Positions 13,116 through 36,000 of a stretch of DNA of 44,194 nt are shown piece after piece; position 1 is the stretch's first letter; every line of letters starts with the position of its first letter. Origin of the DNA: Paludibacter sp. (GTDB lineage Bacteria; Bacteroidota; Bacteroidia; Bacteroidales; Paludibacteraceae); assembly GCA_030653695.1 (NCBI GenBank), contig JAURYY010000241.1, forward strand, positions 1-44,194, in the 5' to 3' direction. Under the pieces are notes generated by a model. It saw nothing but the letters and a program-made list of their open reading frames with translations, had not been told where the DNA came from and searched no databases. Made by a program: the position numbers and the translations under genes.

Positions 13116-13751
13116 TTAAGCTATCTCTACTTTCAACCCAAGTTTCAACCTTTCAGATATTTCGTCCAATTGTTGTTTTTTCTTTACTGTAGCTGAATGG
13201 CTTACAATTAAATAACCACCTGATAATTCGTGTTGATTGTAGAAATCGTCTTTAATCTTTGAAACTAAATTCAAACCTAAATGTTTTAACTGAAGATTTT
13301 CTACTTTGGTTATACCGACACGTTTTACCACATCGATTAATGTTTCATAGGCATATCGATTTGATATTACAGTACCATCAGGAAAAGTAACCGCCAAACC
13401 TGTTTTTGACGATTTTGGTGCGGAAGTTATGGTTTTATCAGTCTTTTTCTCTTTGTCTTTGCTTTTGGGAGCAAGCGAGTACTGTTTGGTTTCTGTTTCA
13501 TCGGTTATAACTCGTTTACGGGTAAGTCGGACACTCAATGACTCATTGGGAATATAATCGACCACCAATACAATTGGACGTTGTATTTGGGTTATAATGG
13601 CTTCTATGCTCTCCGATAAACGAGGAATGATTTCATTTTTAATTAATTCTTCTTCCAGATTATCTACTGCTTTCAGCGTTTCTTCGTGTAAGGGCAAACC
13701 TAATTCTTTAAGGTTGGCAATGGATTGATAGAGTTTTTCGAGGTTAGTCAT
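13116..13751 (-). CDS. unrecognised two-domain protein of defence cluster
   Basis: 211-aa protein. Residues 1-60 are a predicted helical bundle or coiled coil. A polar Lys/Ser/Thr linker (about 85-117) leads to a compact C-terminal domain starting GLAVTFPDGTVISNRYAYET. That domain has a strand-turn-strand with a DG turn, a Val/Ile helix (IDVVKRVGITKVENL), then GGYLIVSHSATVKKKQQLDE and a final helix ending LGLKVEI. I have an impression of similar C-terminal domains in proteins encoded beside restriction-modification genes, but I know no defined function. It is the last gene of the defence operon, 12 bp after the DprA-like gene, and no catalytic motif is evident. It could be a DNA-reading or adaptor subunit; this is inference. 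Confidence 0.75.
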   Translation of the reverse strand: MTNLEKLYQSIANLKELGLPLHEETLKAVDNLEEELIKNEIIPRLSESIEAIITQIQRPIVLVVDYIPNESLSVRLTRKRVITDETETKQYSLAPKSKDKEKKTDKTITSAPKSSKTGLAVTFPDGTVISNRYAYETLIDVVKRVGITKVENLQLKHLGLNLVSKIKDDFYNQHELSGGYLIVSHSATVKKKQQLDEISERLKLGLKVEIA

Positions 13752-13763
13752 GGGATAAATATT

Positions 13764-14222
13764 TTATAGAGTTTGAATCTTCTTCATTCCTTTTTGTTCT
13801 AAATACAATTGATAAAGATTTCCACCCTCATCCAATGAGCCAAAAACAACTTCATCAGCATTATCAATAATATATTTATTTCTTATTAAAGCCGTATTTA
13901 CTGACTGACGGTTTATTGTTTGTGAAACCACCGAAACAATCAATAATCTATCTTCTTTCAATGGATTAATTAATTCCTCCGGAATCTGTTTGTATAATGA
14001 ACGACCTAAAACAAGGATTAATGGTTGCGCTCCTTTTAGTAAAAAATGTAATACATCTTTTTCGAGCTGACTATGAAAACCACTGATAACACATCGTCTT
14101 GCATCGCGCTGTTTAGTAGCCCAATCGTAACAAGCCATTACCGATTGTGGCGAAATGTTTCTACTACTTAAAAATGCAGTTTTGGGCAATTTAAGTAAAT
14201 CTTCATTGCCTATATATTCCAT
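13764..14222 (-). CDS. DprA/Smf-like Rossmann-fold protein
   Basis: 152-aa protein resembling the core of DprA/Smf (SLOG superfamily). It has KTAFLSSR at the first strand, CVISGFHSQLEKD (44-56) in the place of the nucleotide-binding S-G-x-x-x-G-I-D loop, a LILVLGRSL strand, and RNKYIIDNADEVVFGSLDEG (114-133), equivalent to the RN-x-I-I-A-x-x-S/A-D-x-V-V segment of DprA. It lacks the SAM-like N-terminal and winged-helix domains of housekeeping DprA (about 360 aa), so it is a stand-alone version. Known DprA loads RecA on single-stranded DNA; SLOG domains in defence loci may sense nucleotides. It lies 12 bp after the RloB-like gene and 12 bp before the last gene. Confidence 0.75.
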   Translation of the reverse strand: MEYIGNEDLLKLPKTAFLSSRNISPQSVMACYDWATKQRDARRCVISGFHSQLEKDVLHFLLKGAQPLILVLGRSLYKQIPEELINPLKEDRLLIVSVVSQTINRQSVNTALIRNKYIIDNADEVVFGSLDEGGNLYQLYLEQKGMKKIQTL

Positions 14223-14234
14223 ACGCTTACATCA

Positions 14235-14846
14235 TTATTTTTTATCATCCAGTTTTTCGACAACACCAATTTCCTCAAAAAAATGAACCATCTCAGAATA
14301 TGTGTAATTTCTGTCATCTGTATCTTTGGAATCTATTGATCTGCGCCCATTAGCAACAGCAGTATCAAAATTACCCCCACATTTAATGATATGTTGATGT
14401 GTACAAAAGGGTGATTTCTTTTCATAACCAGGTATTTTTCTTTCAAGTTGCCTTTTTAATTCCGGCTCGAACAATCCAAATTCACTGGTTGTATATTGAA
14501 AATGGTAATAAAACCACAATTCTGTACAAGGGTGTGTTTCGTAGAAAATAACTTTTTTACTTTTACGGTATTTTTGCTTTAATTTCTGATACTCTGTCAT
14601 TTCTTTCGAATCTCTCAACTTAGTATCCATATCAACAACACACATTACCTTATCATAGTCTATATTTGCCTCAATTAGCTTTTTCAATTCAGCAACAGAA
14701 GAATGTTTTGGTATGAGTGGCTTAGGCTTATATCCCAATAGTTTATCCTTAAAAGCATCTTTTAAAGAATCAACATAAATAGATTCTGTTTTGCCATCAC
14801 CAATAATAACAATCTGTTTACGTACGGGTTGTTTAGGTCTTGCCAT
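14235..14846 (-). CDS. rloB: RloB/AbiLii-like TOPRIM-type protein
   Basis: 203-aa protein of the RloB family. The N-terminal strand VIIGDGKTES carries the conserved acidic E21 and leads to V-V-D-M-D (71-74), with D72 and D74 in a TOPRIM-like metal site. PCTELWFYYHF (107-117) is the family's second signature. Genes of this family are paired with an AAA15-type ATPase in RloAB, AbiL and related abortive-infection loci, where the TOPRIM partner is the likely nuclease or toxin. It follows the ATPase gene by 5 bp, indicating translational coupling. The target is unknown. Confidence 0.85.
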   Translation of the reverse strand: MARPKQPVRKQIVIIGDGKTESIYVDSLKDAFKDKLLGYKPKPLIPKHSSVAELKKLIEANIDYDKVMCVVDMDTKLRDSKEMTEYQKLKQKYRKSKKVIFYETHPCTELWFYYHFQYTTSEFGLFEPELKRQLERKIPGYEKKSPFCTHQHIIKCGGNFDTAVANGRRSIDSKDTDDRNYTYSEMVHFFEEIGVVEKLDDKK

Positions 14847-14851
14847 ACAAA

Positions 14852-16120
14852 TCAGTTTTCTGAATTATCAATTAAAGTAGAACCCAACTCTGGTTTTGCT
14901 CCTAACTTACCAATTTTATAGGCATTAAACAACGACAGTTTCTTATGTAATTTAAAATCTGAAGCTGAAAACAGTTGACTTTCTGCAGTTTCATGTGATT
15001 TCTCAACCAACTTTACCATATCACGACGAATAAAGTCTTCGTCTAATAATTGCTGATTGTGAATTGAAATAATCAATTGTGAATGTTTACTGTTGCGAAC
15101 AAACCGTAGTAACTCGTTTATCATCAAATCATAATGCAAACTATCCTCAAATTCATCTATTAAATAAATACAATCCGAATATATTAAATCATACATCTTT
15201 CGGCTCAGACGGAAGTATTCAACTGTTCCCAATGATTCGTCTTCTAATTTCAATAAAAAATCACCACGATGGGTAGAATGTGTAAATTGAATTTTCTTTA
15301 CTAATCTCTTGTAAAGGTTGCTTAATTTTTCTTCGGATAAAATATTAGAGTTTACAATTCGTTCATTCAATTCTAATGGATTATCTTCAAGTTCTTCAAT
15401 TATTTCAAAATCAGTGATATTAAAATCTGAACTTTTAAGTGCATCTGCAATAAATTCTTTCAACCTGATGTCTTCCTGTGCTTCTAATGCAATATTAATC
15501 GATTTGCCATGTTCACCAGTTTTATGCATTTTTTGTTCTATCCATTGAAATAACTTTTCAAAAACTGTATTCTCATCTTCAATAATTACTTTCGAAAACG
15601 TTGACAATACAGTATGATTCATCAATGTGTTGGATATTATTGTTTTAACCGAACTTTTTGACAAACCTACCGTAGTTCCAAATATAATCTTTTTATCTTC
15701 AGTCCGTTCATAAATCGTTGCCCTTCTCAATCCATTAACATATTCAAGTTTCTCTGATATAATTGAAGTCTCGTTATACTTTACTTCATAAATATATTTT
15801 ACATCACGTATATAAAATATAATACCAAAAACAGTAGGTTCACCTTTTCTTAATGCAAAAGGTTTATATTGGGTTACTGATTTACTTTTGATGTCCCTTG
15901 GTGTAATCAGTAAATGCCACAAGGTTTCAATTGCAAATAGTAAATTAGATTTACCAGAAGCATTAGCTCCATACAAAATAGCAGTCTTTAGTAGTCGTAC
16001 TCCGGGCTTTACTTCTACGGTTAGTTCATCGAGGTATGTTTTATCGCTGGTTGCCTCAAAGGATACATATTGCCGATCTCCAAACGACATGAAGTTTTCG
16101 ACGTAAAATTCCTGAATCAT
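14852..16120 (-). CDS. rloA: RloA/AbiLi-like AAA15 (ABC/OLD-type) ATPase
   Basis: 422-aa ATPase. FYVENFMSFGDRQ at the N-terminus is the usual start of AAA15/OLD-like ABC ATPases. Walker A is GANASGKS (51-58), a signature-like DESLGTVEYFRL follows at about 294-305, Walker B is CIYLIDEFEDSLH (317-329) and the H-loop is ISIHNQQ (351-357). The central part (about 140-280) is a helical insertion. The family forms a sensor or scaffold with a RloB/TOPRIM partner, encoded next. PARIS (AriA/AriB) is an analogous pair that responds to phage anti-restriction proteins, and that makes the neighbouring restriction-like genes notable. It has a separate promoter-like box upstream (16152-16159). Confidence 0.88.
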   Translation of the reverse strand: MIQEFYVENFMSFGDRQYVSFEATSDKTYLDELTVEVKPGVRLLKTAILYGANASGKSNLLFAIETLWHLLITPRDIKSKSVTQYKPFALRKGEPTVFGIIFYIRDVKYIYEVKYNETSIISEKLEYVNGLRRATIYERTEDKKIIFGTTVGLSKSSVKTIISNTLMNHTVLSTFSKVIIEDENTVFEKLFQWIEQKMHKTGEHGKSINIALEAQEDIRLKEFIADALKSSDFNITDFEIIEELEDNPLELNERIVNSNILSEEKLSNLYKRLVKKIQFTHSTHRGDFLLKLEDESLGTVEYFRLSRKMYDLIYSDCIYLIDEFEDSLHYDLMINELLRFVRNSKHSQLIISIHNQQLLDEDFIRRDMVKLVEKSHETAESQLFSASDFKLHKKLSLFNAYKIGKLGAKPELGSTLIDNSEN

Positions 16121-16151
16121 ATTTTTATCTGTTTATTTGGGAAATTATTTC

Positions 16152-16168
16152 CAAAAATAACGCATAAA
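16152..16168 (-). promoter_or_regulatory. -7 box plus 14-bp motif upstream of rloA
   Basis: On the minus strand TATTTTTG (16152-16159) matches TAnnTTTG. It overlaps the 14-bp motif at 16155-16168, identical to 13089-13102. A TTTTG lies 23 bp upstream, at the limit of normal spacing. This suggests that the rloA-rloB-dprA-like-211aa group can be transcribed apart from the methyltransferase. Confidence 0.5.
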
Positions 16169-16256
16169 ATTCAAATATAGTTCAAAATAAGCGTTGTTTT
16201 AATGTATATTAACCTATACTCGTGCTGACTTTCACATTTTAGTCATATTGGCGACT

Positions 16257-19200
16257 TTACTCCCCTTCACCCTCCAACTCTTTACCCATACGGTACTTAA
16301 TATCGTAGTTGATAATAAAATCCAACTCCTCATCTGTAAAACCATAATGCTGCGCTAAGACTTTGTCGATTTCGTCGATAATGGGTTTGGATTTTTGTGG
16401 AAAGAACTGCATAAATTCAACATCACCAGTTTGGTATTTCGCTTTCTGCATTATTGAATTTTTCTCCATATCTGCCATTAAATCACCACATAATGATATA
16501 AGCCTGTTTTTTAAGGTGGAATCTATGAATTCTACATCAATTGGAAAGTCTTTTAAGTCGCTTGGATTATTAGTTCTTGCATCTGAATGCATTATATAAT
16601 ACCAGTAATATAGTGAACTATTAAGAACAGATATTGCAAGTTTTAGCGTATCATTATCACAGAGATATAAATAGCTTTCACGAGAGGATATTGATTTTAA
16701 ACCGTTTAAATAAAAGGTCGGTTGGAAATCGGTCATGATTTTCCAATACCGACCACCACTATTTCTATAATATAATACATTTAAACTCCTTGAACGAGTT
16801 GTATAAACTCCAATATTTTTTTGTACTTTTCTACATTTTGAAATAACAGACGATTCATTATTACAACTAATTTTGGGTACGATTCCATTTAATATTGTGT
16901 TTTTGGCATCGGAATATGATATATTGTCAAATAAAAAGTTTCTTGAAGTAGAATTCCATTTATAATAATAGGTTGAATTAATTCTATTTACATTTGTCTT
17001 AGATTGCTTTTGTAAAATAGAAATAGCTAAATTTCTTTCAGCTCCTTCAAACAATTTACTCGGTCTTTCGGCATAAAAGCTAATATAAATTTCAGAACAG
17101 TTTTCAAATTCAACTTTCTGAAAGGAAGCCATTCTATCTGTGCAATATGCACTTAATGGTATAATCATACCATTATATGACTTTTCTTTCTGAATCCTTA
17201 ATGATCTTTCAATTACAAATGAATAAAGATTACTCGAAGACAAACATTCATAATTTTTTAAAACATATTTCTTCTTTACGGTTGAGTATTCTACATACGG
17301 CGGATTCCCAATAATCACATCAAAGCCACCATTTCCTTTTATTATTTGGTAGAATTCAGCTAACCAATGAAAGGGTTGGTGAGAAGTGAGCCAATCTTCA
17401 TATTTCAAAGCACTTTGAGTGCTATATAATCTTCGATTTAATGTATTGTTTAGGTCTTTTAAGCGGGCTTGTAAGTCTGTTTTTGCCTGTTTAAAAATGG
17501 CCATATCGCTATGCTGATTGAGTTGAATTTCTTTAAAGCGTTGGTAAGTGAGTGCCACTTTATCCATGCCATCTTCTACCTTTTCTTTAAATTCGAGGTT
17601 TGCGAACATATCACCATAAGTCAGGTCGTGGTCGAGCTCCGCTTCGGTGGCATAACCCACCAGCGTATTTCCACAACGTATATTAAAATCAATATCGGGC
17701 AATGGGTCAAGCCCTAAGTTATCGGCACGTCGGTTTACATCCACCACCGCCACCATTTTCAAGAACAAGCGCAATTTGGCTATTTCAGTAGCTTCAGGCA
17801 TAATATCTACACCATAAAGGTTGCGTAGGATAATGCTTTTGTATATAAAATACTGAATGTTACTGCGGTATTTATTACTTATTTCGCCCAGTTCGTCTTT
17901 AAATAAGTTGGAGTTTTCACGGTTAAAATCCTCCATACGGGCAATACAGATTTCGTAGAGTGGTTCCAGGATATTCATTGCCGCAAATAGAAAAGCACCT
18001 GAACCGCACGTTGGATCAAGAATGGTAATTTTTAATAAGGCACGATAAAAATGGAGTACGAACAAATGGTCGGTAGTTCGTTCTAATAAGTCCTGTACGA
18101 AAGTGCGAATATCTAAGTTGTAGGTAATAAAATCATTGATTTGAGTAATTTCACCGTTGGCAATTTTGTTTATCAACTCATTACATCGCTGGCGACGTTC
18201 CACTGTTTCGCGCCAAATTTCGGTAGGTAATGCCATTGTTTCGTGCGTTGGTTCATTCCACCGGGCGCGTCGGTTTAATAAATTGGGCTGAGTTGTGTCA
18301 ATACCATTTTCAATATAATCGGGCAATGGCAGGTCCATACCTTTTTTTACTGCATTGTAAATATAGCGGTGGTCGCTGTTTTTTACCGTTTGCCAAACGT
18401 AACCTTCGGGCTTAAAATGCTTTTTCGAAGGCGATTTGGCTACTTCGTCCATCAAGTAAGGTATAATGCTGTTTTTACCGATATATTCGGTTATATCTTC
18501 TTTGGTGTAATATGCACCCATTTGAGCTCGGTCGTTGATATATTGTTCAAAAATATAACCCAACACATCGGGATTTATATCTTTGCCGGTAGCAGTAATG
18601 CGTGTGTCTAAGTGCCATCGCCATTTATCAAAAAAGTCGAATAGGGTTTCGAACGCTTTATCATCAATGTCAATAGCTGCGTATTGTTTTTCAAGCTGGT
18701 GTTCGTCAAACATACCGCCATTCAGATACGGAATGCGTCCGTACATTTTTTCAAAATCAAGGTCGTGTGTAGGATTATTCAACCCTCCCCGAAACAATAC
18801 AGTCAGGAATCCTTTGTAGAATGATGAGAAAAACTGATTTTCACCTTGTTGTTGCTGTGTCCAATTCAGTTTATTACGCAAATAATGTTCGTCGAAATTC
18901 AAAAAACCTTTCTTTTGAATAAAATAACAGAACATCAACCGATTTAGCATTACCGAAGCATACCATTGTTTATCACCCTCTACATCGATACCCTGAATAA
19001 AACTGACAAATGATTTGTGTTGTGTTTTGAAACCTGCATAAAAGTCTTTTGTTATTTTACCAGCGTTTACTTCAAATGCTTTGTGAATTCGGGTAGTAAC
19101 ATCCACGATAGTAACATCTTCGTCTATGTCAAAGCTAATATCGTGTAACTTTCCAAAAAGAAAATCGGCTTGAGCCGAAGTTGGATATTCAATAGTAACC

Positions 19201-19526
19201 AAATCGCGTTTCTCAACTGTTTTTACAGGAGTAATCCACAAATGGTGTTCGCAGTTTGTTTTTTTGAAAATAAGAATATAATCGTTGGAATATCGCCGTA
19301 ACTTGATGTCAATTTTCCTACACAGTGCATTTTGGGGTATAGAATCAACCATGCACTCGTAAATAATAAAACCACGTTTTTGAGCTACTGCCTGAAATTC
19401 AAATTCTATATCGTCAATGCTAATAGAGGTATCGAGCTGATGTCCTGCCCTATCCCAACCTAATTCATTGAAAAATTCGATAAACTGTGTAGCACTTAGA
19501 TATAGGTTAAATTGAGTACGATTCAT
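16257..19526 (-). CDS. Eco57I-type N6-adenine DNA methyltransferase
   Basis: Large (about 1,089 aa) DNA methyltransferase of the Eco57I/type IIG-like class. Numbered from the upstream TTG at 19547, an N-terminal region of about 320 aa precedes LGYIFEQYINDRAQMGAYYT (329-348). SAM motif I DPTCGSGAFL is at 511-520 and the catalytic motif IV NPPY at 748-751. A TaqI/Eco57I-like target-recognition region follows (LYSFVIERSLRIQ onward, with LNGLKSISS and LNSSLYYWYY). No PD-(D/E)xK nuclease motif is recognisable in it, so cleavage must come from another subunit, most likely the PLD-helicase encoded upstream. I choose the ATG at 19526 over the TTG at 19547. It probably marks self DNA and may supply specificity to the complex. 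Confidence 0.9.
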   Translation of the reverse strand: MNRTQFNLYLSATQFIEFFNELGWDRAGHQLDTSISIDDIEFEFQAVAQKRGFIIYECMVDSIPQNALCRKIDIKLRRYSNDYILIFKKTNCEHHLWITPVKTVEKRDLVTIEYPTSAQADFLFGKLHDISFDIDEDVTIVDVTTRIHKAFEVNAGKITKDFYAGFKTQHKSFVSFIQGIDVEGDKQWYASVMLNRLMFCYFIQKKGFLNFDEHYLRNKLNWTQQQQGENQFFSSFYKGFLTVLFRGGLNNPTHDLDFEKMYGRIPYLNGGMFDEHQLEKQYAAIDIDDKAFETLFDFFDKWRWHLDTRITATGKDINPDVLGYIFEQYINDRAQMGAYYTKEDITEYIGKNSIIPYLMDEVAKSPSKKHFKPEGYVWQTVKNSDHRYIYNAVKKGMDLPLPDYIENGIDTTQPNLLNRRARWNEPTHETMALPTEIWRETVERRQRCNELINKIANGEITQINDFITYNLDIRTFVQDLLERTTDHLFVLHFYRALLKITILDPTCGSGAFLFAAMNILEPLYEICIARMEDFNRENSNLFKDELGEISNKYRSNIQYFIYKSIILRNLYGVDIMPEATEIAKLRLFLKMVAVVDVNRRADNLGLDPLPDIDFNIRCGNTLVGYATEAELDHDLTYGDMFANLEFKEKVEDGMDKVALTYQRFKEIQLNQHSDMAIFKQAKTDLQARLKDLNNTLNRRLYSTQSALKYEDWLTSHQPFHWLAEFYQIIKGNGGFDVIIGNPPYVEYSTVKKKYVLKNYECLSSSNLYSFVIERSLRIQKEKSYNGMIIPLSAYCTDRMASFQKVEFENCSEIYISFYAERPSKLFEGAERNLAISILQKQSKTNVNRINSTYYYKWNSTSRNFLFDNISYSDAKNTILNGIVPKISCNNESSVISKCRKVQKNIGVYTTRSRSLNVLYYRNSGGRYWKIMTDFQPTFYLNGLKSISSRESYLYLCDNDTLKLAISVLNSSLYYWYYIMHSDARTNNPSDLKDFPIDVEFIDSTLKNRLISLCGDLMADMEKNSIMQKAKYQTGDVEFMQFFPQKSKPIIDEIDKVLAQHYGFTDEELDFIINYDIKYRMGKELEGEGE

Positions 19527-19615
19527 ATTTTTAGATTTTAGATTCAAGAGCCAAGATTCAAGACATTTTCAAATTCTTGGTTGCACCAAGCGGCAAAGCC
19601 GAGCGGGCATGTTGG

Positions 19616-20036
19616 TTAATATTTAATTGACTATCAGCTTTTGCACCCAATCTGATTTATTGATAGACCTTGTTGAGTTTTTTTAGAATAATATCTCTCA
19701 GAAATTGTTTGCAAAATAGAATATATAGTTGAAATTAACTAAATCAATAAGGTTTAGATTCATCGCATAACATCATTCTACTAAGGTTAAAAAAATAATC
19801 ACTACATTTTAAATTTGGATAAACTCCACACATTCAGCGATTATATTTGAATTTAAAACCTTATTTTCAATTTTGCAACCTTAGTAGAAAAAAAATAAAT
19901 AATAAAATCTAACCTTATTACCTTATTTTATTTTTTGATAAATTATTGATTTAAATTTACTATTTGCACAAACATAATTGGTTATTTCGCAATAATTCTA
20001 CCTTTGGGTGCAAAAGCTGATAGTCATTTAATATTT
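19616..20036. mobile_element. 403-bp non-autonomous (MITE-like) element with target duplication
   Basis: Perfect 23-bp inverted repeats at 19628-19650 and 20004-20026 (starting TGACTATCAGCTTTTGCACC) bound a non-coding AT-rich core. Outside them is an identical 9-bp direct repeat TTAATATTT (19616-19624 and 20028-20036), the expected target-site duplication. Nested inside is a second 13-bp perfect inverted repeat, TTCTACTAAGGTT (19776-19788) and its complement (19877-19889). It has no open frame of note. It starts 4 bp after the helicase stop codon and separates helicase from methyltransferase, so it may add a terminator or promoter to the operon. It explains the 500-bp gap before the methyltransferase gene. 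Confidence 0.85.
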
Positions 20037-20040
20037 TCAA

Positions 20041-23000
20041 TTAGTCTTCGTTTTTTAATCCCATTGAACAAATAATTTGCGGGTCTTTGTGCTTTGTATC
20101 ATCTTCATTAATAATGCATAGTTCATCATTTTTGCGAAGTTCAACCACTAACTCGGCTAATTCCATAACCGGAGCACCACGTTTAAGTTGTTGACCTAAA
20201 ATATACTTTGCATTTTCGAACAAAGGGTAGTTGTAAATGTCATCTACTGCTAACTTCAAATCGTCTGTTACAAACAAGGTGTTAAGATTGCTTTTACAAT
20301 AACCATCGAGTAGTGTAAACAAACGGTACTTAGTACTAAACCTACTCCCCAAAATACCACTTGTTTTTACATCTTGTTGTTGCATTAAGAGTATCGATTT
20401 CTCAACTAAGTCGTGGTGAGTTTCTAAAGGCTGTAAAGCTGATTCATCAATAGGGCAAGACAATGTATTTAAAATAATATGTTGAGATTGAGTAACAACT
20501 TCCTTTTTTGCATTCATCCAAGTCAACATATCGTTACCTTCCGGGGTTTTTGCATAGGTTATTACCCCTTCTTTCAAAGAGCTATCATTATTTTTCTTTG
20601 TCGAATAAACCACATTGCTCAAACTTGGTATAATAACTTTAAGCATTGGATTGGCTTCGGTGGCTGTTTTCCAAATCTGGAATGCTTGTGAAGCCAAATC
20701 AACTTCACCTTCATCCTCTTCGTCAATTGTTCCGGCTTTCTCATTGTACATATCCACCAAATTCTGCTCATTGCCTTCAAAGAAGATTTCATCGCCACCT
20801 ACAATATTGGCACTCTCGTTGATACGGTCATTCAATCTACGACGAAGATTGATTATCCGTTCAATACCTTCTGCCGGAAAAAAAGAATAACAATAAATTT
20901 GTTCGGCTTCCTGCCCGATGCGGTCAACACGTCCGGCACGCTGAATTAATCGGATGATTGCCCAAGGAAGGTCAAAATTTATAATGATATGTGCATCTTG
21001 CAAATTTTGTCCTTCGCTCAGAACATCGGTGGCTATCATAACCCTTGTTTGATGTTCGATTGGAATTTCAGTATTTGCCTGATTACTTACAGGTGAAAAT
21101 TTTTCAACAGCATGTGTTGGATTGTCGCTATCGCCAGTAACACATGCAATATGTGTTATTCCCCGCTTTTTTAATTGACTGAAAACATAATAAGCTGAGT
21201 CGGAAAATTGTGTGAATACAATCATCTTTTCATCTTTATGCGTTTTAGTAATCATTTCGGCTAAGGCATTCAGTTTCTGGTCGGTTTTAGGATTCCATGC
21301 TCCACAAAGCTCAATCATTTGAATTAGCGTGTCGCAATCTTTTTTCAATGCCAGTTTCAATGACCGTTTGAAGTAACGGCTATCAATCCAACTGATACGA
21401 CTTGTATTACTGCTAATAGTTTGATAATACTCTTTGGCTTTCTGAATATATGAATCAAATTCAGTTGAAAAGTTTATATGTTCATTTGTGGTTTGTTCAG
21501 AACCATTACCTTTTACACCTTCAAATAAAGTCCCCTCTAAATCGTCATCATCACTATATCCATCAGGTAAATTTCCTTCGTCGCCAATTGGCAATGGCAA
21601 CTTATTTTCTATGGCATAGATATAAAGTGAATTCCGTAATATATGCCGATAAAGCGAAATGAGAAATGATACACCACTACTGTCTAAGCGTTTATAGAAG
21701 TTAGTTCTACAAAAACCCATCATGCGTTCACCAGCACGTGATAAATTTTCTAACACCTGATTTTCAGTATCGTTTGCATTCTTGATCTTTTCAGGATCTA
21801 TATGCTTACTCAATCCATAACGAGGGAGTTTTAATCCGCTCATTAAATCAACCATCTCTTGTGAGTAAAGGCGATTGAATTGATCGTTATCTTCTGTTGG
21901 GAATTTAATGGCTCGTGGTAAACGTTCAGGAAAATAGGATCGTTTACCGTTGCTGAATTGAAGATATTTACGCCCATTACTTTCGTCTAATGGAGCATAG
22001 TTCTCTTTAATAAAAGTACGTGTACGACGTACTAAAAAAAGCCGCATTAATTCCCTCCAGTCGTCTGAATCTGAACTTCTTTCGAATGCTTTAATACTGC
22101 GGATATAATCTTCTGCATGTCTTTTAGAAAATTCACGTGTGCCACCTAATGTGCGAATATATCCTTCGGGCTGAATACCCAAGTCGGCATCTTCTCGGAT
22201 AAAGAGTTTTAGTTGGTTACTTAAATCGCTAAAATCTTTATTGTAAGGGGTAGCTGTCAATAATAACACCTTACTACTTTGGAATTCAATCAGTTCTCGT
22301 ATGTTTCTGTATCGTTGTCCTTCACTATTTCTAAGATTATGACTTTCATCAATAATAACCAACCGATAATACTTCATGTTTTTATAATCCAATCGTTTAG
22401 AAATGGAAACAACATCAGCTTTTAAATCGTATTTGATTACATGTTTTTTCCACATTTCCTGAAGATTAGCCGGACAAAGAATGAGTGTGCTACATGCATT
22501 CCTCATTTCATACACTTTTGCAACTGCGCAAGCTGTAATTGTTTTTCCTAATCCGACCACATCACCAATCATAGCACCACCTCTACGCTCAAGGTGCCGG
22601 GCTGCTAATTTTACGGCTGTTGATTGAAATTCAAATAATTCATTCTGAAACTCGGTAGGTAAATTATATTCACTGATACCATTTCTTGCCTCTTGACTAA
22701 GGTGGTAGGCAGTTTTCAAATAAATATAATAAGGTGGAGTTACGATTTCACTTGCCCAACTTTCATCAATAATTTCAATTAATTCTTTGCTTATATCAAT
22801 TGAAAGTCTGTCTTCCCAACGGTCGTTAAACCAATTCGCTAATTTTTCGGCACTATCACTATCTCCAAATTCTGCATTCAATTCACCTTGTCCGGTAAGC
22901 CCACTGTATGTAAGATTACTGCTGCCCATAATGGCTTGAATCTTATTGAAGTGATCGTCTGGTCTGTGAGCCAGATATAATTTTGCATGAAGTGGTTCTT

Positions 23001-23430
23001 TCAGATAAAGTTTTACGACTACACGCTCTTCTTTTAATTGAGCTGAAAGTCTGCGTAATGTCCATTCATCTTTTGAAGAAGGGATTCCTACTGTTAGCTG
23101 TTTGCGAAACTCTGCTGCGATTTGTCGCTTGCACCGTTTCACATCTTCACTGTCAGTCAGATTATTATCAAGTTTTGAATATAAACTTCGTATAATGTCC
23201 TCTGGAGGGCGGTGCATTCCAACTAAAAGTCGACAAATTCTAAAAATTCTTTCATCTTGCTCATAAATATATTCACCTTCAATTTTATCTACTTCATTTA
23301 AAACAAGATTCCATCCCCTCAAATTAAAATATCCCACACAAAAATCAAGGTGTTTTACACCGTGATTTGAAATTATATCGTGAAGACCTTTTGTGAATTT
23401 TAAATCAATATTGTCGTATATTCTGGCCAT
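20041..23430 (-). CDS. PLD-nuclease / SNF2-helicase fusion
   Basis: 1,129-aa protein. Residues 1-230 form a phospholipase-D-like domain: HAKLYLAHR (148-156) supplies the H-x-K part and GSSNLTYSGL (169-178) the following GSxN, as in PLD nucleases, with GELNAEF after it. Then comes an SF2/SNF2 motor: GDVVGLGKTITA (289-300, Walker A), DESHNLRN (361-368), LLTATPYN (390-397), TDVLSEGQNLQ (801-811) and QRAGRVDRIGQ (830-840). A long insertion of about 240 residues separates the two helicase lobes. The last 250 residues have no recognised motif. It is the likely translocating nuclease of a restriction-like system with the downstream methyltransferase. It starts 29 bp after the HhH-GPD-like gene. Confidence 0.9.
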   Translation of the reverse strand: MARIYDNIDLKFTKGLHDIISNHGVKHLDFCVGYFNLRGWNLVLNEVDKIEGEYIYEQDERIFRICRLLVGMHRPPEDIIRSLYSKLDNNLTDSEDVKRCKRQIAAEFRKQLTVGIPSSKDEWTLRRLSAQLKEERVVVKLYLKEPLHAKLYLAHRPDDHFNKIQAIMGSSNLTYSGLTGQGELNAEFGDSDSAEKLANWFNDRWEDRLSIDISKELIEIIDESWASEIVTPPYYIYLKTAYHLSQEARNGISEYNLPTEFQNELFEFQSTAVKLAARHLERRGGAMIGDVVGLGKTITACAVAKVYEMRNACSTLILCPANLQEMWKKHVIKYDLKADVVSISKRLDYKNMKYYRLVIIDESHNLRNSEGQRYRNIRELIEFQSSKVLLLTATPYNKDFSDLSNQLKLFIREDADLGIQPEGYIRTLGGTREFSKRHAEDYIRSIKAFERSSDSDDWRELMRLFLVRRTRTFIKENYAPLDESNGRKYLQFSNGKRSYFPERLPRAIKFPTEDNDQFNRLYSQEMVDLMSGLKLPRYGLSKHIDPEKIKNANDTENQVLENLSRAGERMMGFCRTNFYKRLDSSGVSFLISLYRHILRNSLYIYAIENKLPLPIGDEGNLPDGYSDDDDLEGTLFEGVKGNGSEQTTNEHINFSTEFDSYIQKAKEYYQTISSNTSRISWIDSRYFKRSLKLALKKDCDTLIQMIELCGAWNPKTDQKLNALAEMITKTHKDEKMIVFTQFSDSAYYVFSQLKKRGITHIACVTGDSDNPTHAVEKFSPVSNQANTEIPIEHQTRVMIATDVLSEGQNLQDAHIIINFDLPWAIIRLIQRAGRVDRIGQEAEQIYCYSFFPAEGIERIINLRRRLNDRINESANIVGGDEIFFEGNEQNLVDMYNEKAGTIDEEDEGEVDLASQAFQIWKTATEANPMLKVIIPSLSNVVYSTKKNNDSSLKEGVITYAKTPEGNDMLTWMNAKKEVVTQSQHIILNTLSCPIDESALQPLETHHDLVEKSILLMQQQDVKTSGILGSRFSTKYRLFTLLDGYCKSNLNTLFVTDDLKLAVDDIYNYPLFENAKYILGQQLKRGAPVMELAELVVELRKNDELCIINEDDTKHKDPQIICSMGLKNED

Positions 23431-23459
23431 AAAAATTGTTAGGAATAAAGAGTAATTTA

Positions 23460-24005
23460 TTAATAACCGTTTAGTTTTATGTCTTTGTTGAATTTCTTAT
23501 CCATTGCAAAAAATACTCTGTCTGCATTTTCAAATTCAACATTATATAGCTGGCAAGCCTCTTTCATTTTATCTAAATAGTCAGTATAAAGACAAATTTG
23601 CATATTAATGTCTTTTAAATCGTATTTTAGTTCCTTGCCAAATAAGAATCTATATACTCGCTGATCAATAATTTGATAAACTTTTGGATTTTTAAAACGA
23701 AGGATAGTTGAGACCATTGCTAAACGAATCCCCTTTTGAGAGTAATGAAGCAAGTGTAAAAATATCTCACCAAGTAATGCAATATCAATTTCTGTGTCTT
23801 TTTTGCTGATTCTATTAATTAATTTCATAGTTTCAACATCGATAGGAGCATATCTATTTACTTTCCATAGAACAATTTGATTGATAATTTCTTGATTAAA
23901 ATCTGTGTCAATTAAGTCTAATGCTTCAGTTTGTTCCGGTTGATATTTGTAATCATAAGAATTACAGTCAATGTCAGTAAGTGAAAATTCAAAGATTGTT
24001 TGCAT
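23460..24005 (-). CDS. HhH-GPD-like small protein heading the defence operon
   Basis: 181-aa protein with a segment resembling the helix-hairpin-helix of DNA glycosylases. KGIRLAMVSTILRFKNPKVY (91-110) stands in the place of the G-V-G-x-x-x-A-x-x-I-L-x-F hairpin. IIDQRVYRF (112-120) places an Asp (D114) where glycosylases keep the catalytic Asp of the V-D-T-H-V motif. The lysine used by bifunctional glycosylases and the Cys4 iron-sulfur loop are absent. LWKVNRYAP (46-54) is a further conserved-looking segment. It may recognise DNA structure or a modified base. It is the first gene after the operon promoter. Family assignment is by eye and moderately uncertain. Confidence 0.65.
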   Translation of the reverse strand: MQTIFEFSLTDIDCNSYDYKYQPEQTEALDLIDTDFNQEIINQIVLWKVNRYAPIDVETMKLINRISKKDTEIDIALLGEIFLHLLHYSQKGIRLAMVSTILRFKNPKVYQIIDQRVYRFLFGKELKYDLKDINMQICLYTDYLDKMKEACQLYNVEFENADRVFFAMDKKFNKDIKLNGY

Positions 24006-24208: not shown

Positions 24209-24487
24209 TCAAAGGTTGGTTGATTTTGCTAATTTCCTAATTGCTTTTCTGTAATTTACTCCCAGCAATTCTGTTACATCACTCATGAGGTAATAAATCT
24301 TGTACACGACAGTTGTATAAGAAATATAGCCTTCATTGCGCCAAGTTTGTGCGGTACGTTTACTAATATTTATTAATTGGATAAACTCTTGATTGTTGAG
24401 AAAAAAACCTTCTTGGTTTTGCTCAAAAGCAACCGTGAAGGTTTTTTCTTTTAAATCAGTTGCAGCATATTTTTCATCTGTCTTGAC
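24209..24487 (-). pseudogene. excisionase-like HTH protein, no start codon
   Basis: The minus-strand frame from 24487 to the stop at 24209-24211 encodes a typical small Bacteroidota helix-turn-helix protein of mobile elements: EGFFLNNQEFIQLINISKR, then TAQTWRNEGYISY, then KIYYLMSDVTELL. This is a DUF3853/MerR-like HTH with the wing predicted from the Ile-Tyr-Tyr-x-x-Ser-Asp-Val segment. No ATG, GTG or TTG occurs in frame before a stop at 24488-24490, and a strong hairpin overlaps its 5' part, so the start has probably been lost. It is probably the remnant of an integrative element at the right edge of the island. Confidence 0.6.
24402..24450. terminator. long two-part hairpin, bidirectional terminator-like
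   Basis: AAAAAACCTTC (24402-24412) pairs with GAAGGTTTTTT (24437-24447). Nested inside, GGTT plus GCT pair with AGCAACC. Runs of T follow on both strands. It lies between the island and the glucanotransferase gene and may insulate the two. Confidence 0.75.
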
Positions 24488-33004: not shown

Positions 33005-36000
33005 TTATCGCGTAAGCATAAATTTAAAGCTCATCCCGAAGTTGGTCGAAGAAACGGGGAAAGTGGATGAAATTAAAGGCATACTCATTTGTCGGTCGTA
33101 GAACAACTGAATATTTACCTTTGAACTGAAAACATAATCTGCTATAATTTTAAGCGTAAACAGTTTATTACCACTTGATGCCTGGGTCAGATTTTCATCA
33201 ATTTTTCGCAATAAAGTTTTAATATCCTTGTACGACAAATCGGCACTTAGTTTCAGGTCGTTTTTAATTCTCGATTGCTGATCCGATTTCAATTTTAGAA
33301 TAACATCGAAGTCTTTCACCAAATAACCCATCCCGACAACAAATTCATCGGATGCTGCATCGATAAGCTGGGTACTTGAAAGGTTCAACGCCAAATTCCG
33401 TTGTTTGCGGTATTCTAGTTTAGCGGTCATACTGTTTTTCATGGCAGCATTAATTCCGATTAAGGGACTAAACTGTTCGGTAAGCGATACACTTGAAATA
33501 TCGAATGGCGAAGAAGGAATCGGGTTATTAGACTGCACATCGCGAATATAACCCAATGCCGAATTATCGTCGCCCATAGCAACCCAGGTCGAATAAGATG
33601 TATAAGAACCAATGCTGTAACGACATGTGTAGGCATGAGTCAAGCTAATTGATCTAAAATTATCCTTAAACCACTGTATATGCGAAAGCCCATCGTAACT
33701 GACACGCCAGTTGGGCAAAACACTTAACAATGAAAGGAAAGGGTTTGTATCCATTTTGTTTGCATCCCTACCCGAATAGGCAGCCAGAAACGCCGGAATA
33801 AGCACATCTGAAGAATTTTGATTGTAAGTTCCCAACGTTGAATTATATTCCTTTCCTGCAATTTTTGGAATTTCGGAAAAGAAACCTGTAGTCGGATATT
33901 TTGTACCGTTGAGTTTTGAATTCAACCGATTGGCAATTATTTGCCTATTTTTCAAAAAATTATCAAAAACTTCGGAATAGTAATTATCTGTTGCACCTTT
34001 CATCGGTTTAAATGCTGTGGCAATAGCCACTTGAGTTATATTATAACTTCCGTTGAAAGTTTGCGGCATTCCATCAAACATATACTGAATGGTAGTATTG
34101 GAAGCCATATATCTTTTACCGTTCAAATCAATTTTTAATCCCGGAATCGGTTCGAGCGAAGCTTTAATATCCAAATCGGAAGTAAACGCCGTTGAAGCCG
34201 GATTGATGATTGAATCACTCATGAACAACCAATTGTTATCAATTGCATTATGAATTGTGTTATTATCATGAAAACCAAAAGTATAAGCAAACCCCGGAGC
34301 ATACATGCCGTTCGCTGTTTGTTTTTGTCCCATGAAACCCGCCTCAGGATAAAACCCTGGCAAAACCATGCTGTTCGATTCGCGATAAGTGATCGATGCT
34401 CTTCGTGTCATCATAGCCAAACGACTCACAAAATCAATAATTTCTCTTCCAATCGGACGATCATTCGGATTCACCGTAGCAATCGAAACATGAATACTGT
34501 CAGCACTATACTTTGGTGTAAAGACAATGGTTGTCGGATTAAGCGTTTTATACGACAGTTTAACAGGTTTGCCCGATTTATCGGTTGCTGTCAGTATAAT
34601 TTTTTCAGTACCAAGTCTGTGTTTCAAACTGTCAATCGTATTTTTATTGAAAGTAATTGTTTGTTTAAATGTTTTTGGTTGGAATTTTTGTTGGGCTTGA
34701 ACCATTTGAGTTCCAAATCTCCTGTTTACTTCTTTCAGGTATTTCGATTTATTATAAAAAGTCTCAAAATTCAAATTGGCATCAACTTGCCATGCACCCA
34801 TGCTTGTTGCAATATTTCCAATATTCGAAGCTCCTTGAATAGTTGCCGTCCGGTTCCAGTTATAAGTCGAGTTATATGATGCTGTTGCCGTTATCCAGTC
34901 AAATGCCGGAATTTTATTAACAGGAATCGTCCATGAAGCAGAAAACACTTGTTGATAAGCAAATGGAGACCCTAATTTTCTGATATTTGACCACACGGTA
35001 TCTCTCCATTGTTCATAATATTCTTTGCCAATTTCGGGTGTATAATAAGGTTCTTCAATATTTGCATTCATGGCAGTTTGCAAACTGAAACGCAATGATT
35101 TGGTCAAATCAAACTTCATATCGAACTGTCGGTTCCACATAAAATCTTTACTGAAGGTTAAATCAAGATTATTCCCTGCTACAACGGTATTATTAAAATC
35201 TCTCAGTTTGGTTTGCGAAAACTGACGGTTTAAATCGGTATTGAAACTTATGGACTGAGGCAAATAATACAGGTTAAAATCCCTAATGATAGCAAAAGCC
35301 GGTTTAGAGAATGATTTTACTTTTTTGAACGGTTCCCACGGTTTGGGATTAAATGAGAAATTATAATTTGCAGCAGCACGCTCCTGTTTATTTAAGTTTT
35401 TCTCAATTTCAGAAGTATGTTGACTTGTTTCGTTATATGCATAAGTAAATGAAAGGTTTGCTGGATCGTAGAACTGTGGATTTTTACTTCTGATATTCAC
35501 TCTTGCCGATGAAATATTGAAACTTTTTGAAGTCTGCACCATTTGCGAAATTAATTTTAACGAATCGCGTTCTGACTGGGAATTCATATTCTCAAGTGCA
35601 TCATTCAACAACACATCCTGATCAAGCGGATTGTATTTTGGGCTTATTGTTTCGTTGGTGTACGAAAAATAAGCCGGCAGCTGAATTTTTGCCTGTTCGG
35701 GTAAAAGCCTGCCCAATTCAAGTGACGTTGAGAAATTCATTTGGTATAAATCGTCCATTCTCCGATTCATAACATTGCTTTCAAGACTTCCGTAACCTGC
35801 AGTTTCAACTCTGCCCGAGAAATTTATTTTTCCAATATCCGAAAGCCCCACCGCAATGTTTGCCAAGGCTGCCCAACCCCCATCTTCATTAAATTCATTC
35901 ATTCTCAATTCGTTCACCCAAATTTCGCCCGATTTAATATTATTGGACGCATTCCGCACTCCAATCATTATATTCTGAACATCTGATATTGTAGGATTGC

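What the first reader, a model, noticed from the sequence alone, without database searches (positions are those of the whole stretch)
13116..24005. Seven-gene composite defence operon: split restriction-like machine plus RloAB/DprA-like module
On one strand and behind one good promoter lie an HhH-GPD-like protein, a PLD-SNF2 fusion, an Eco57I-type methyltransferase, an AAA15 ATPase, a RloB-type TOPRIM protein, a stand-alone DprA-like protein and an unrecognised protein. In type ISP enzymes nuclease, helicase, methyltransferase and target recognition are in one chain; here the nuclease/motor and the methyltransferase are separate, and the nuclease is PLD rather than PD-(D/E)xK. It does not match DISARM (no DrmA/DrmB), BREX (no PglZ/BrxL) or classical type I (no HsdS). 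The layout, with a restriction-type layer upstream and an abortive-type layer downstream, suggests a two-tier system. The individual families are known; the combination I have not seen described.
Basis: partly seen in the sequence, partly recalled or inferred. Interest (0 to 1): 0.85.

Follow-up and report, generated by a model that had tools for sequence, protein, structure and literature searches.

The report
Restriction system with swappable defence slot
The seven bacterial genes do not look like one fixed machine: three of them form a widespread restriction-type defence system, and the gap between two of those three genes is a slot into which many different toxins and antiviral modules have been swapped, here the RloA-RloB pair.

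Summary
The seven ORFs are real, on one strand, at the stated coordinates, but they are not a seven-gene system. Relatives show a conserved core (PLD-SNF2 helicase/nuclease, Eco57I/IIG-like methyltransferase, small DprA-like protein) whose methyltransferase/DprA junction is a hypervariable cargo slot. Of 49 relatives with enough flanking sequence, 45 have both PLD-SNF2 and DprA. The slot is empty (gap up to 100 bp) in 22 of 66 loci and over 300 bp in 42. Cargo in loci examined includes Gabija, DarTG, a PARIS-like pair, bSEFIR, YhcG, RhuM and toxin-antitoxin pairs. The 64 slot ORFs form 43 clusters, 33 singletons; of 19 pairs of loci with PLD-SNF2 at least 90% identical, 6 share slot state. In the window the cargo is RloA-RloB, found elsewhere mostly without this core and co-occurring with DprA no more than expected; one relative (L091) has RloAB nearby on the opposite strand. 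P0001 is a recurrent optional accessory; P0007 is probably unrelated. Defence genes embedded in restriction operons are known; my searches found no description of this chassis.

The parts
20041..23430 (-). Core gene 1 (P0006): N-terminal PLD/HKD nuclease domain fused to SNF2 helicase, 1129 aa
   Evidence: Pfam PLDc_2, SNF2-rel_dom, Helicase_C; PADLOC C3a139 HKD+Snf2 179.9 bits; HxK, GSSN, Walker A and DESH residues invariant in 77 aligned sequences
16257..19526 (-). Core gene 2 (P0005): Eco57I/IIG-like N6-adenine methyltransferase with C-terminal variable TRD; ATG at 19526 fits the homologues (TTG 19547 gives the longest ORF)
   Evidence: Pfam Eco57I 98.9 bits; PADLOC REase_MTase_IIG 944.5 bits over residues 8-1092; motif I and NPPY residues at 0.99-1.00 in 80 aligned sequences
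13764..14222 (-). Core gene 3 (P0002): small DprA-like (SLOG-type) protein, 152 aa
   Evidence: DNA_processg_A E 3.7e-05, below cut-off; PADLOC PsyrA 38.2 bits; homologue after the MTase in 66 of 80 relatives
14223..16256 (.). Hypervariable cargo slot between MTase stop and DprA-like start; here 2,034 nt filled by RloA-RloB
   Evidence: Gap and cargo comparison over 66 loci; pairwise DNA breaks at this junction
14852..16120 (-). Slot cargo (P0004): RloA/AbiLi-like AAA ATPase, 422 aa
   Evidence: AAA_21 78.4 bits; PADLOC AbiLi 207.8 bits
14235..14846 (-). Slot cargo (P0003): RloB/AbiLii-like protein, 203 aa
   Evidence: Pfam RloB 84.1 bits; PADLOC AbiLii 53.9 bits
13116..13751 (-). Optional accessory (P0001), no known family; 67% identical homologue directly after the MTase in genome G170
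   Evidence: in the slot of 6 other loci, directly after DprA in 3 others
19623..20031 (.). MITE-like element (28-nt terminal inverted repeats) between core genes 1 and 2
23460..24005 (-). P0007, 181 aa, no known family; adjacent gene, probably not part of the system

Best explanation
The locus is a three-gene restriction-modification-like core (PLD-SNF2, IIG-like methyltransferase, DprA-like) whose MTase/DprA junction is a recombination-prone slot for foreign defence and toxin modules; in this genome the slot holds the RloA-RloB (AbiL-type) pair. Shown: gene order, conservation, slot variability and cargo identity by profile. Inferred: the methyltransferase marks one adenine motif read by its C-terminal TRD on host DNA; the PLD-SNF2 protein translocates on unmarked DNA and cuts it with its HKD domain, probably as a dimer because only one HKD-type motif was recognised per chain; RloA-RloB acts as an independent second layer that stops growth when phage escapes restriction. 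The DprA-like protein serves the core (it stays when the slot is empty), most likely as a DNA- or nucleotide-sensing regulator. New cargo probably arrives by homologous recombination between conserved stretches at the 3' end of the MTase gene and in DprA.
For: PLD>MTase gap up to 100 bp in 67 of 75; MTase>DprA gap up to 100 bp in 22 of 66, over 300 in 42. Of 64 loci with both gaps, an insert over 300 bp lies only at MTase/DprA in 39, only at PLD/MTase in 1, at both in 2 (p 7e-11). 64 slot ORFs make 43 clusters, 33 singletons; of 19 (not independent) pairs with PLD-SNF2 at least 90% identical 6 share slot state. DNA alignments of seven close pairs break at the TRD in six and at the MTase/DprA junction where cargo differs. 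Known systems in slots: Gabija 564.7 + 424.8 bits (L196), DarT 203.9 + DarG 403.7 (L032), bSEFIR 254.2 (L109). Slot ORFs follow the core strand in 60 of 64, nearest upstream ORFs 42 of 64 (p 1e-4), nearest downstream 32 of 57 (p 1e-6). L067 and L091 carry extra MTase 3' fragments followed by a further DprA, as scars of exchange would.
Against: No activity was tested. Of 52 loci with at least 5 kb downstream, 5 lack DprA (L059, L088, L093, L096, L124). In the class survey L034 has a distant MTase and no DprA, L037 only a 20-residue DprA piece, and L039 (38% identical PLD-SNF2) neither MTase nor DprA. Of five plasmid loci read (of 31 records with a PLD-SNF2 match), three carry a close MTase, two a distant one, none DprA. 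Inserts also occur at PLD/MTase: a VapC-family toxin gene on pSYSX, the MITE-like element in the window. PADLOC contrast of slot against upstream genes is modest (143 against 75 families hit at 1e-10; members with any hit not counted), so the surroundings are defence-rich too. Two of 42 filled slots hold no separate ORF of 100 aa or more; many cargo ORFs have no known family. The sample leans to Bacteroidales MAGs.
Confidence: 0.75

Rival explanations
1. A true seven-gene two-tier system in which RloAB, DprA and P0001 co-evolved with the restriction half.
For: All seven lie on one strand with short gaps among the last four genes. One relative, L091, has RloAB near the core, though on the opposite strand and past the first DprA.
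Against: No other locus examined has RloAB in the slot. RloB and DprA-like co-occur in 3 of 393 genomes (2.7 expected), on different contigs in the two besides the window. The 26 further RloB loci (26 of the 51 genomes) show no core gene within flanks of up to 1.5 kb. DprA stays with the core without RloAB in the slot in 66 of 80.
Confidence: 0.05
2. Coupled slot: the DprA-like protein is the sensor or antitoxin that holds the cargo (RloAB here) in check and releases it when restriction is overrun, so core and cargo form one functional circuit with a changeable warhead.
For: P0002 matches the DprA part of PsyrA. PMC9122126 (passage read) describes a DprA + PRTase antiphage system, suggests that DprA senses phage DNA, and notes DprA homologues as antitoxins. 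The DprA-like gene also ends a type I RM operon with YhcG (L193, there fused to GIY-YIG) and another HKD/SNF2 + MTase operon with RhuM and AlbA (L200).
Against: 22 of 66 loci keep DprA with an empty slot. Some cargoes (DarTG, MqsRA-like) bring their own antitoxin by family.
Confidence: 0.2
3. The slot is only a neutral hotspot: operon transcription makes it a safe landing place, and cargo and core do not interact at all.
For: Cargo is highly diverse, including genes with no obvious defence role (trypsin-like, 23S IVP family), and the window's RloA has a promoter-like site of its own, though such sites are near chance.
Against: Inserts favour one of the two junctions 39 to 1 and keep the core's strand in 60 of 64 ORFs; neither shows interaction.
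Confidence: 0.4
4. The MTase itself is a complete type IIG enzyme with its own N-terminal nuclease, and the PLD-SNF2 protein is an accessory.
For: Full-length PADLOC REase_MTase_IIG match, 944.5 bits; predicted N-terminal strand-helix pattern.
Against: In the N-terminal columns examined there is no invariant PD-(D/E)xK-like set in 80 sequences (for example D80 0.89, K82 0.57), while the PLD residues are invariant in 77. No Foldseek match at E 0.001 or better.
Confidence: 0.1

Closest known systems
RloAB / AbiL (AbiLi-AbiLii)
   Same: P0004-P0003 are this pair by profile
   Different: The seven RloAB loci of this order read with wider context (L205-L211) have no PLD-SNF2/MTase core; here the pair is cargo in a restriction operon
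Type-2 BREX-related (BR) systems (PMC12839542, abstract and passages read)
   Same: HKD nuclease fused to Snf2 helicase plus separate N6-MTase; backup effectors embedded in core loci
   Different: BR type 2 has the DUF499 ATPase and DUF3780; neither is among the seven. 'DprA' has 0 occurrences in that paper's main text
Type I RM operons with embedded defence genes: PrrC in EcoprrI (PMC3874165, PMC3710099), TgvAB and, as cited there, RloF (PMC11411939), DarTG2 (PMC12255303); passages read
   Same: Toxin or defence module between restriction core genes
   Different: Different chassis: no HsdM/HsdS/HsdR here; slot lies between MTase and DprA
PADLOC C3a139 'HKD+Snf2' and NCBIfam NF042964 (phospholipase D-like antiphage protein)
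   Same: Same domain combination as P0006 (179.9 and 153.8 bits)
   Different: P0006 is far below the NF042964 cut-off (1100 bits); these single-protein models say nothing of MTase or DprA
DprA + phosphoribosyltransferase antiphage system / PsyrTA-type (PMC9122126, passage read)
   Same: DprA-like protein in a defence context
   Different: P0002 matches only positions 123-246 of the 398 of PADLOC's PsyrA

Membership tests
RloAB / AbiL | AAA ATPase with adjacent RloB-family protein | tested here: met
   AbiLi 207.8 bits, AbiLii 53.9 bits, Pfam RloB 84.1 bits
RloAB / AbiL | Abortive antiphage activity | not testable with these tools
   needs phage assay
Type IIG RM enzyme | MTase and TRD in one chain of the family | tested here: met
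   PDLC03628 aligned over 8-1092 of P0005; the variable region between close pairs lies where a C-terminal TRD is expected
Type IIG RM enzyme | Active nuclease domain in the same chain | tested here: inconclusive
   no invariant nuclease-like set in the N-terminal columns examined; fold search without a match at E 0.001 or better
Type I RM | HsdM, HsdS and HsdR | tested here: not met
   no Methylase_S, HsdM_N or HSDR_N hit among the seven
DISARM | DrmA and DrmB present | tested here: not met
   no DrmB hit shown among the seven (lists for P0005 and P0006 capped at 25); DrmA only as a helicase cross-hit of P0006 at 67.2 bits
BREX | PglZ and BrxC/PglY | tested here: not met
   no such Pfam hit among the seven or the ten neighbouring ORFs scanned; other window ORFs not scanned
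BREX-related type 2 (BR-2) | HKD-Snf2 helicase plus N6-MTase | tested here: met
   P0006, P0005
BREX-related type 2 (BR-2) | DUF499 ATPase and DUF3780 | tested here: not met
   no such Pfam hit among the seven or the ten neighbouring ORFs scanned
PsyrTA-like toxin-antitoxin | Antitoxin of PsyrA type over its length, plus toxin | tested here: not met
   only positions 123-246 of the 398 of PsyrA match; no other PADLOC PsyrTA hit shown among the seven
Restriction operon with embedded defence cargo | Independent defence module between core genes, absent or replaced in relatives | tested here: met

The most novel reading that the evidence does not exclude
A modular immune chassis: the conserved DprA-like protein is a general trigger that reads a product or failure of the PLD-SNF2/MTase restriction reaction and arms whatever module is recombined into the slot, so that one sensor-restriction core works with dozens of unrelated interchangeable warheads, with target specificity (TRD) and warhead exchanged independently.
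Probability: 0.15. Interest if true: 0.88.

Novelty: new variant of a known kind. Interest (0 to 1): 0.6.

Why it matters
The slot between MTase and DprA is easily recognised and occurs in many Bacteroidales genomes, by their titles often gut or rumen MAGs, and in some other phyla. Unknown genes found there become strong candidates for antiphage or toxin function ('guilt by embedding'): 33 of 43 cargo clusters here are singletons and many have no family. Two exchangeable cassettes (TRD and cargo) in one operon give a natural experiment on whether restriction and abortive layers are functionally coupled, and on what DprA-like proteins do outside transformation.

Tried and rejected
Seven-gene system: rejected on co-occurrence, with L091 told as the nearest thing to a second case. 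DISARM, BREX, type I and BR-2 membership: rejected on missing components. HhH-GPD for P0007: no support. P0007 matched 9 of 198 genomes at E 0.01, four of them strongly (G000, G104, G171, G029); the neighbours in the latter three, judged by eye from ORF heads, look unrelated. P0001 structure: low confidence (mean pLDDT 69.6), no fold match at E 0.001. MTase N-terminus as PD-(D/E)xK: inconclusive. PADLOC slot-versus-flank contrast: only modest (143 against 75 families). DprA-like on plasmids: no match. A methylation motif for the pSYSX homologue: not found in the passages read (PMC6560206), which concern another pSYSX methyltransferase; one search gave no paper with the recalled gene name. Single promoter: promoter-like sites are near chance (59 found, 52.6 expected; 7 against 3.74).

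The 30 cargo proteins and the cargo among the ten were chosen by eye as likely recognisable; searches scanned all 64 slot ORFs of 100 aa or more from the 66 loci. L031-L045 and L192-L211 are extra loci outside those 66 (L192 comes from the same genome as L101).
Full report
What is in the window. The contig is a 44,194-bp piece (contig C293) of a 3.69-Mb assembly of 383 contigs. Seven minus-strand ORFs occupy 13116-24005 between chromosomal genes: PrmC-like, sigma-70 and tRNA-Cys on one side; 4-alpha-glucanotransferase, an AIRS-family protein and DnaJ on the other. In transcription order they are P0007 (181 aa, no family), P0006 (PLD-SNF2), P0005 (Eco57I/IIG-like methyltransferase), P0004 (AAA_21/AbiLi-like), P0003 (RloB), P0002 (DprA-like) and P0001 (no family).

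The operon is interrupted. Between PLD-SNF2 and MTase lies a 409-bp element with 28-nt, 96% complementary ends. Its end sequence matches 58 places in the genome with up to two mismatches, 0 for the reversed control, and five further near-full-length copies are 81-88% identical. It looks like a MITE. RloA is preceded by a 136-nt gap with a promoter-like TTTG/TANNTTTG site, though such sites are not significantly enriched in the window (7 found, 3.74 expected). A single promoter for all seven is not supported.

Finding the core. A survey of 295 genomes of the class, the window's own included, found PLD-SNF2 homologues in 18 (E 1e-30 or better), RloB in 6 (1e-8) and P0001 in 2 (1e-3). Nine PLD-SNF2 loci of 38-62% identity were read with context (L031-L039). 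The MTase follows directly in six, a distant MTase (36%) follows in L034, L038 is cut by the contig end, and L039 (38%) has no MTase hit. In five of the six a 44-51% identical DprA-like gene lies 1.8-3.5 kb past the MTase with no RloAB in between; the sixth, L037, keeps only a 20-residue DprA piece. In genome G170 a 67% identical P0001 homologue follows the MTase. PLD-SNF2 lies upstream on the same strand in 75 of 80 (the other five MTases start within 544 bp of the locus end) and DprA-like downstream in 66 of 80. Of 52 loci with at least 5 kb downstream, 47 have DprA; of the 49 that also have 3.6 kb upstream, 45 have both genes. L059, L088, L093, L096 and L124 have PLD-SNF2 but no DprA, also by profile search.

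The slot. The PLD-SNF2/MTase gap is at most 100 bp in 67 of 75 loci (median 21). The MTase/DprA gap is at most 100 bp in 22 of 66, 101-300 in 2 and over 300 in 42 (median 765, maximum 4563). In the 64 loci with both gaps, an insert over 300 bp is found only at MTase/DprA in 39, only at PLD/MTase in 1 and at both in 2 (binomial p 7e-11). The 64 slot ORFs of 100 aa or more, from 40 of the 42 filled slots, form 43 clusters, 33 singletons; 60 of 64 lie on the core's strand, against 42 of 64 nearest upstream ORFs (p 1e-4) and 32 of 57 nearest downstream ORFs (p 1e-6). Pfam on all 64 at 1e-5 hits 33 families, of which 25 are shown: DUF1016 N-terminal domain 7 (YhcG nuclease 6), RhuM 4, DUF3644 2, KAP NTPase 2, Panacea antitoxin 2, Schlafen AlbA_2 2, and single AAA_15, DUF4435, PIN, RelB, TIR/SEFIR, NYN and DUF3368 hits, among others. 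Selected loci checked by PADLOC: GajA (564.7 bits) + GajB (424.8), i.e. Gabija, in L196; DarT (203.9) + DarG (403.7) in L032; bSEFIR (254.2) in L109; AriA/AriB-like (113 and 58.5) in L072; L196 and L032 are extra loci outside the 66. PADLOC families hit at 1e-10 number 143 for slot ORFs and 75 for upstream control ORFs. This contrast is modest, does not count members, and shows that the surroundings are defence-rich too.

Exchange is recent and local. Among 61 loci with full-length PLD-SNF2 and a DprA, 19 pairs (not independent) have PLD-SNF2 at least 90% identical; 6 of these pairs share slot state, 5 of them by a shared cargo family. Examples: L105/L072 (97.3% identical; trypsin-like + YhcG + AlbA-type against PARIS-like + AlbA, the last shared), L052/L101 (96.6%; empty against DUF3644), L062/L098 (94.6%; empty against YhcG). 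DNA alignments of seven close pairs run at about 76-90% identity through PLD-SNF2 and most of the MTase, break where the TRD is expected in six (not in L053/L081), and resume for the last roughly 90-150 bp of the MTase. They break again at the end of the MTase gene where cargo differs and resume in shared cargo or DprA in six (not in L075/L086). L067 and L091 carry extra MTase 3' fragments followed by a further DprA copy. These look like scars of recombination through the MTase 3' end and DprA. In L065 and L087 a 132-aa cargo is an in-frame extension of the MTase.

RloAB and the other neighbours. In 393 genomes of the order, RloB is found in 51 (1e-8) and the DprA-like protein in 21 (1e-8, including weak hits to longer ORFs that may be ordinary DprA). 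Both occur in 3 genomes (2.7 expected), on one contig only in the window. The 26 further RloB loci (26 of the 51 genomes) show RloA and mostly RloB but no PLD-SNF2, MTase or DprA within flanks of up to 1.5 kb (in L161 only RloA passed the cut-off there). The seven read with wide context also lack a core (L205-L211). Against this, one of the 80 core loci, L091, has a RloAB pair about 2 kb past its first DprA, on the opposite strand and before an MTase fragment and a second DprA; L081 has a 30% identical AAA gene on the opposite strand without RloB. P0001's family occurs in the slot of six other loci, right after DprA in three, and far from the core in L083. P0007 has no homologue in any of the other 95 loci scanned; the neighbours of its three close homologues look unrelated by eye.

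DprA from the other side. Fifteen genomes of the order have strong DprA-like hits (E 1e-22 or better). Thirteen were read with context (G438 and G524 were not). Eight carry the PLD-SNF2/MTase core or its MTase end (G000, G391, G170, G401, G591, G445, G584, G618; G391 is the genome of L101), one a type I RM with YhcG between HsdM and HsdS and DprA fused to GIY-YIG (G622), one a different HKD/SNF2 + MTase + RhuM + AlbA operon (G448), and three show no restriction gene in the stretch read (G319 near a contig end, G592, G378). The DprA-like protein thus tends to end restriction operons that carry cargo, across chassis types.

Likely mechanism. Invariant in 77 PLD-SNF2 sequences: HxK and GSSN of the HKD nuclease, the GLGKT of Walker A and DESH. 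At 0.99-1.00 in 80 MTases: motif I and NPPY. In the N-terminal MTase columns examined there is no invariant nuclease-like set and the predicted N-terminal domain has no confident fold match, so the PLD domain is the likely cutter. Inferred: methylation of a TRD-specified motif protects host DNA, PLD-SNF2 translocates on and cuts unmodified DNA, and RloAB is a second, growth-stopping layer. Because DprA is kept in 22 loci with an empty slot, it probably serves the core. Whether it also controls cargo is open; PMC9122126 (passage read) proposes DNA sensing by DprA and cites DprA homologues as antitoxins.

What is known. Toxin and defence genes embedded in restriction operons are established: PrrC in EcoprrI (PMC3874165 and PMC3710099, passages), TgvAB and, cited there, RloF of Campylobacter (PMC11411939, passages), DarTG2 in a type I system (PMC12255303, passages), and backup effectors in BREX and BREX-related systems, including a type 2 with HKD-Snf2 + MTase + DUF499 + DUF3780 (PMC12839542, abstract and passages). 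That the Rlo genes were named for linkage to type I restriction loci is recalled. Searches of the open-licence full-text library listed no paper that, by title, start of abstract or the passages I read, describes a PLD-SNF2 + MTase + DprA core or its slot. Longer hit lists were cut, most listed papers were not opened, and subscription papers and the Payne et al. preprint were not available. I therefore rate it a new variant of a known kind.

Limits. No function was tested. The 80 loci are the best-scoring ones and lean to Bacteroidales MAGs. ORF calls are mechanical. Contig ends hide some slots. Two of the 42 filled slots (L065, L106) have no separate ORF of 100 aa or more by the filter used.

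Noticed in passing
window 19623-20031 and genome-wide: MITE-like family with end TGACTATCAGCTTTTGCACCCAA: 58 end matches in G000 (up to 2 mismatches), 23 of them starting within 400 bp of a contig's first base, which may help explain the fragmented assembly.
   Followed up: partly
L067:17120-19687 and L091:18992-20045: Extra MTase 3' fragments followed by a further DprA copy downstream of the first slot; likely recombination scars or stored cassettes.
   Followed up: partly
L091:16581-18456, minus strand: A RloAB pair lies between the first and second DprA copies of this core locus, on the opposite strand: the nearest thing to a second RloAB-core association.
   Followed up: no
L212:15487-19434 (Synechocystis plasmid pSYSX): PLD-SNF2 and MTase homologues (46% and 43%) with a VapC-family toxin gene between them and no DprA hit: a second insertion point in cyanobacterial relatives.
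   Followed up: partly
L193:3236-13180: Type I RM operon with YhcG between HsdM and HsdS and a GIY-YIG-DprA fusion at its end.
   Followed up: partly
G000 C368 (L048) and C102 (L049): C-terminal fragments of the P0001 family elsewhere in the same genome; the first lies after an ORF that looks like a type I specificity subunit, the second near ORFs that look unrelated to restriction (by eye).
   Followed up: no
window 24209-24460, minus strand: HTH_17-like frame (Pfam E 3.9e-05, 24.3 bits, below the cut-off of 27) upstream of P0007, possibly a relic of a mobile element.
   Followed up: no
L065:13274-13672 and L087:8430-8828: A 132-aa cargo family is an in-frame extension of the MTase.
   Followed up: no
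window 33005-40423, minus strand: 2472-aa ORF outside the finding's coordinates, not examined.
   Followed up: no
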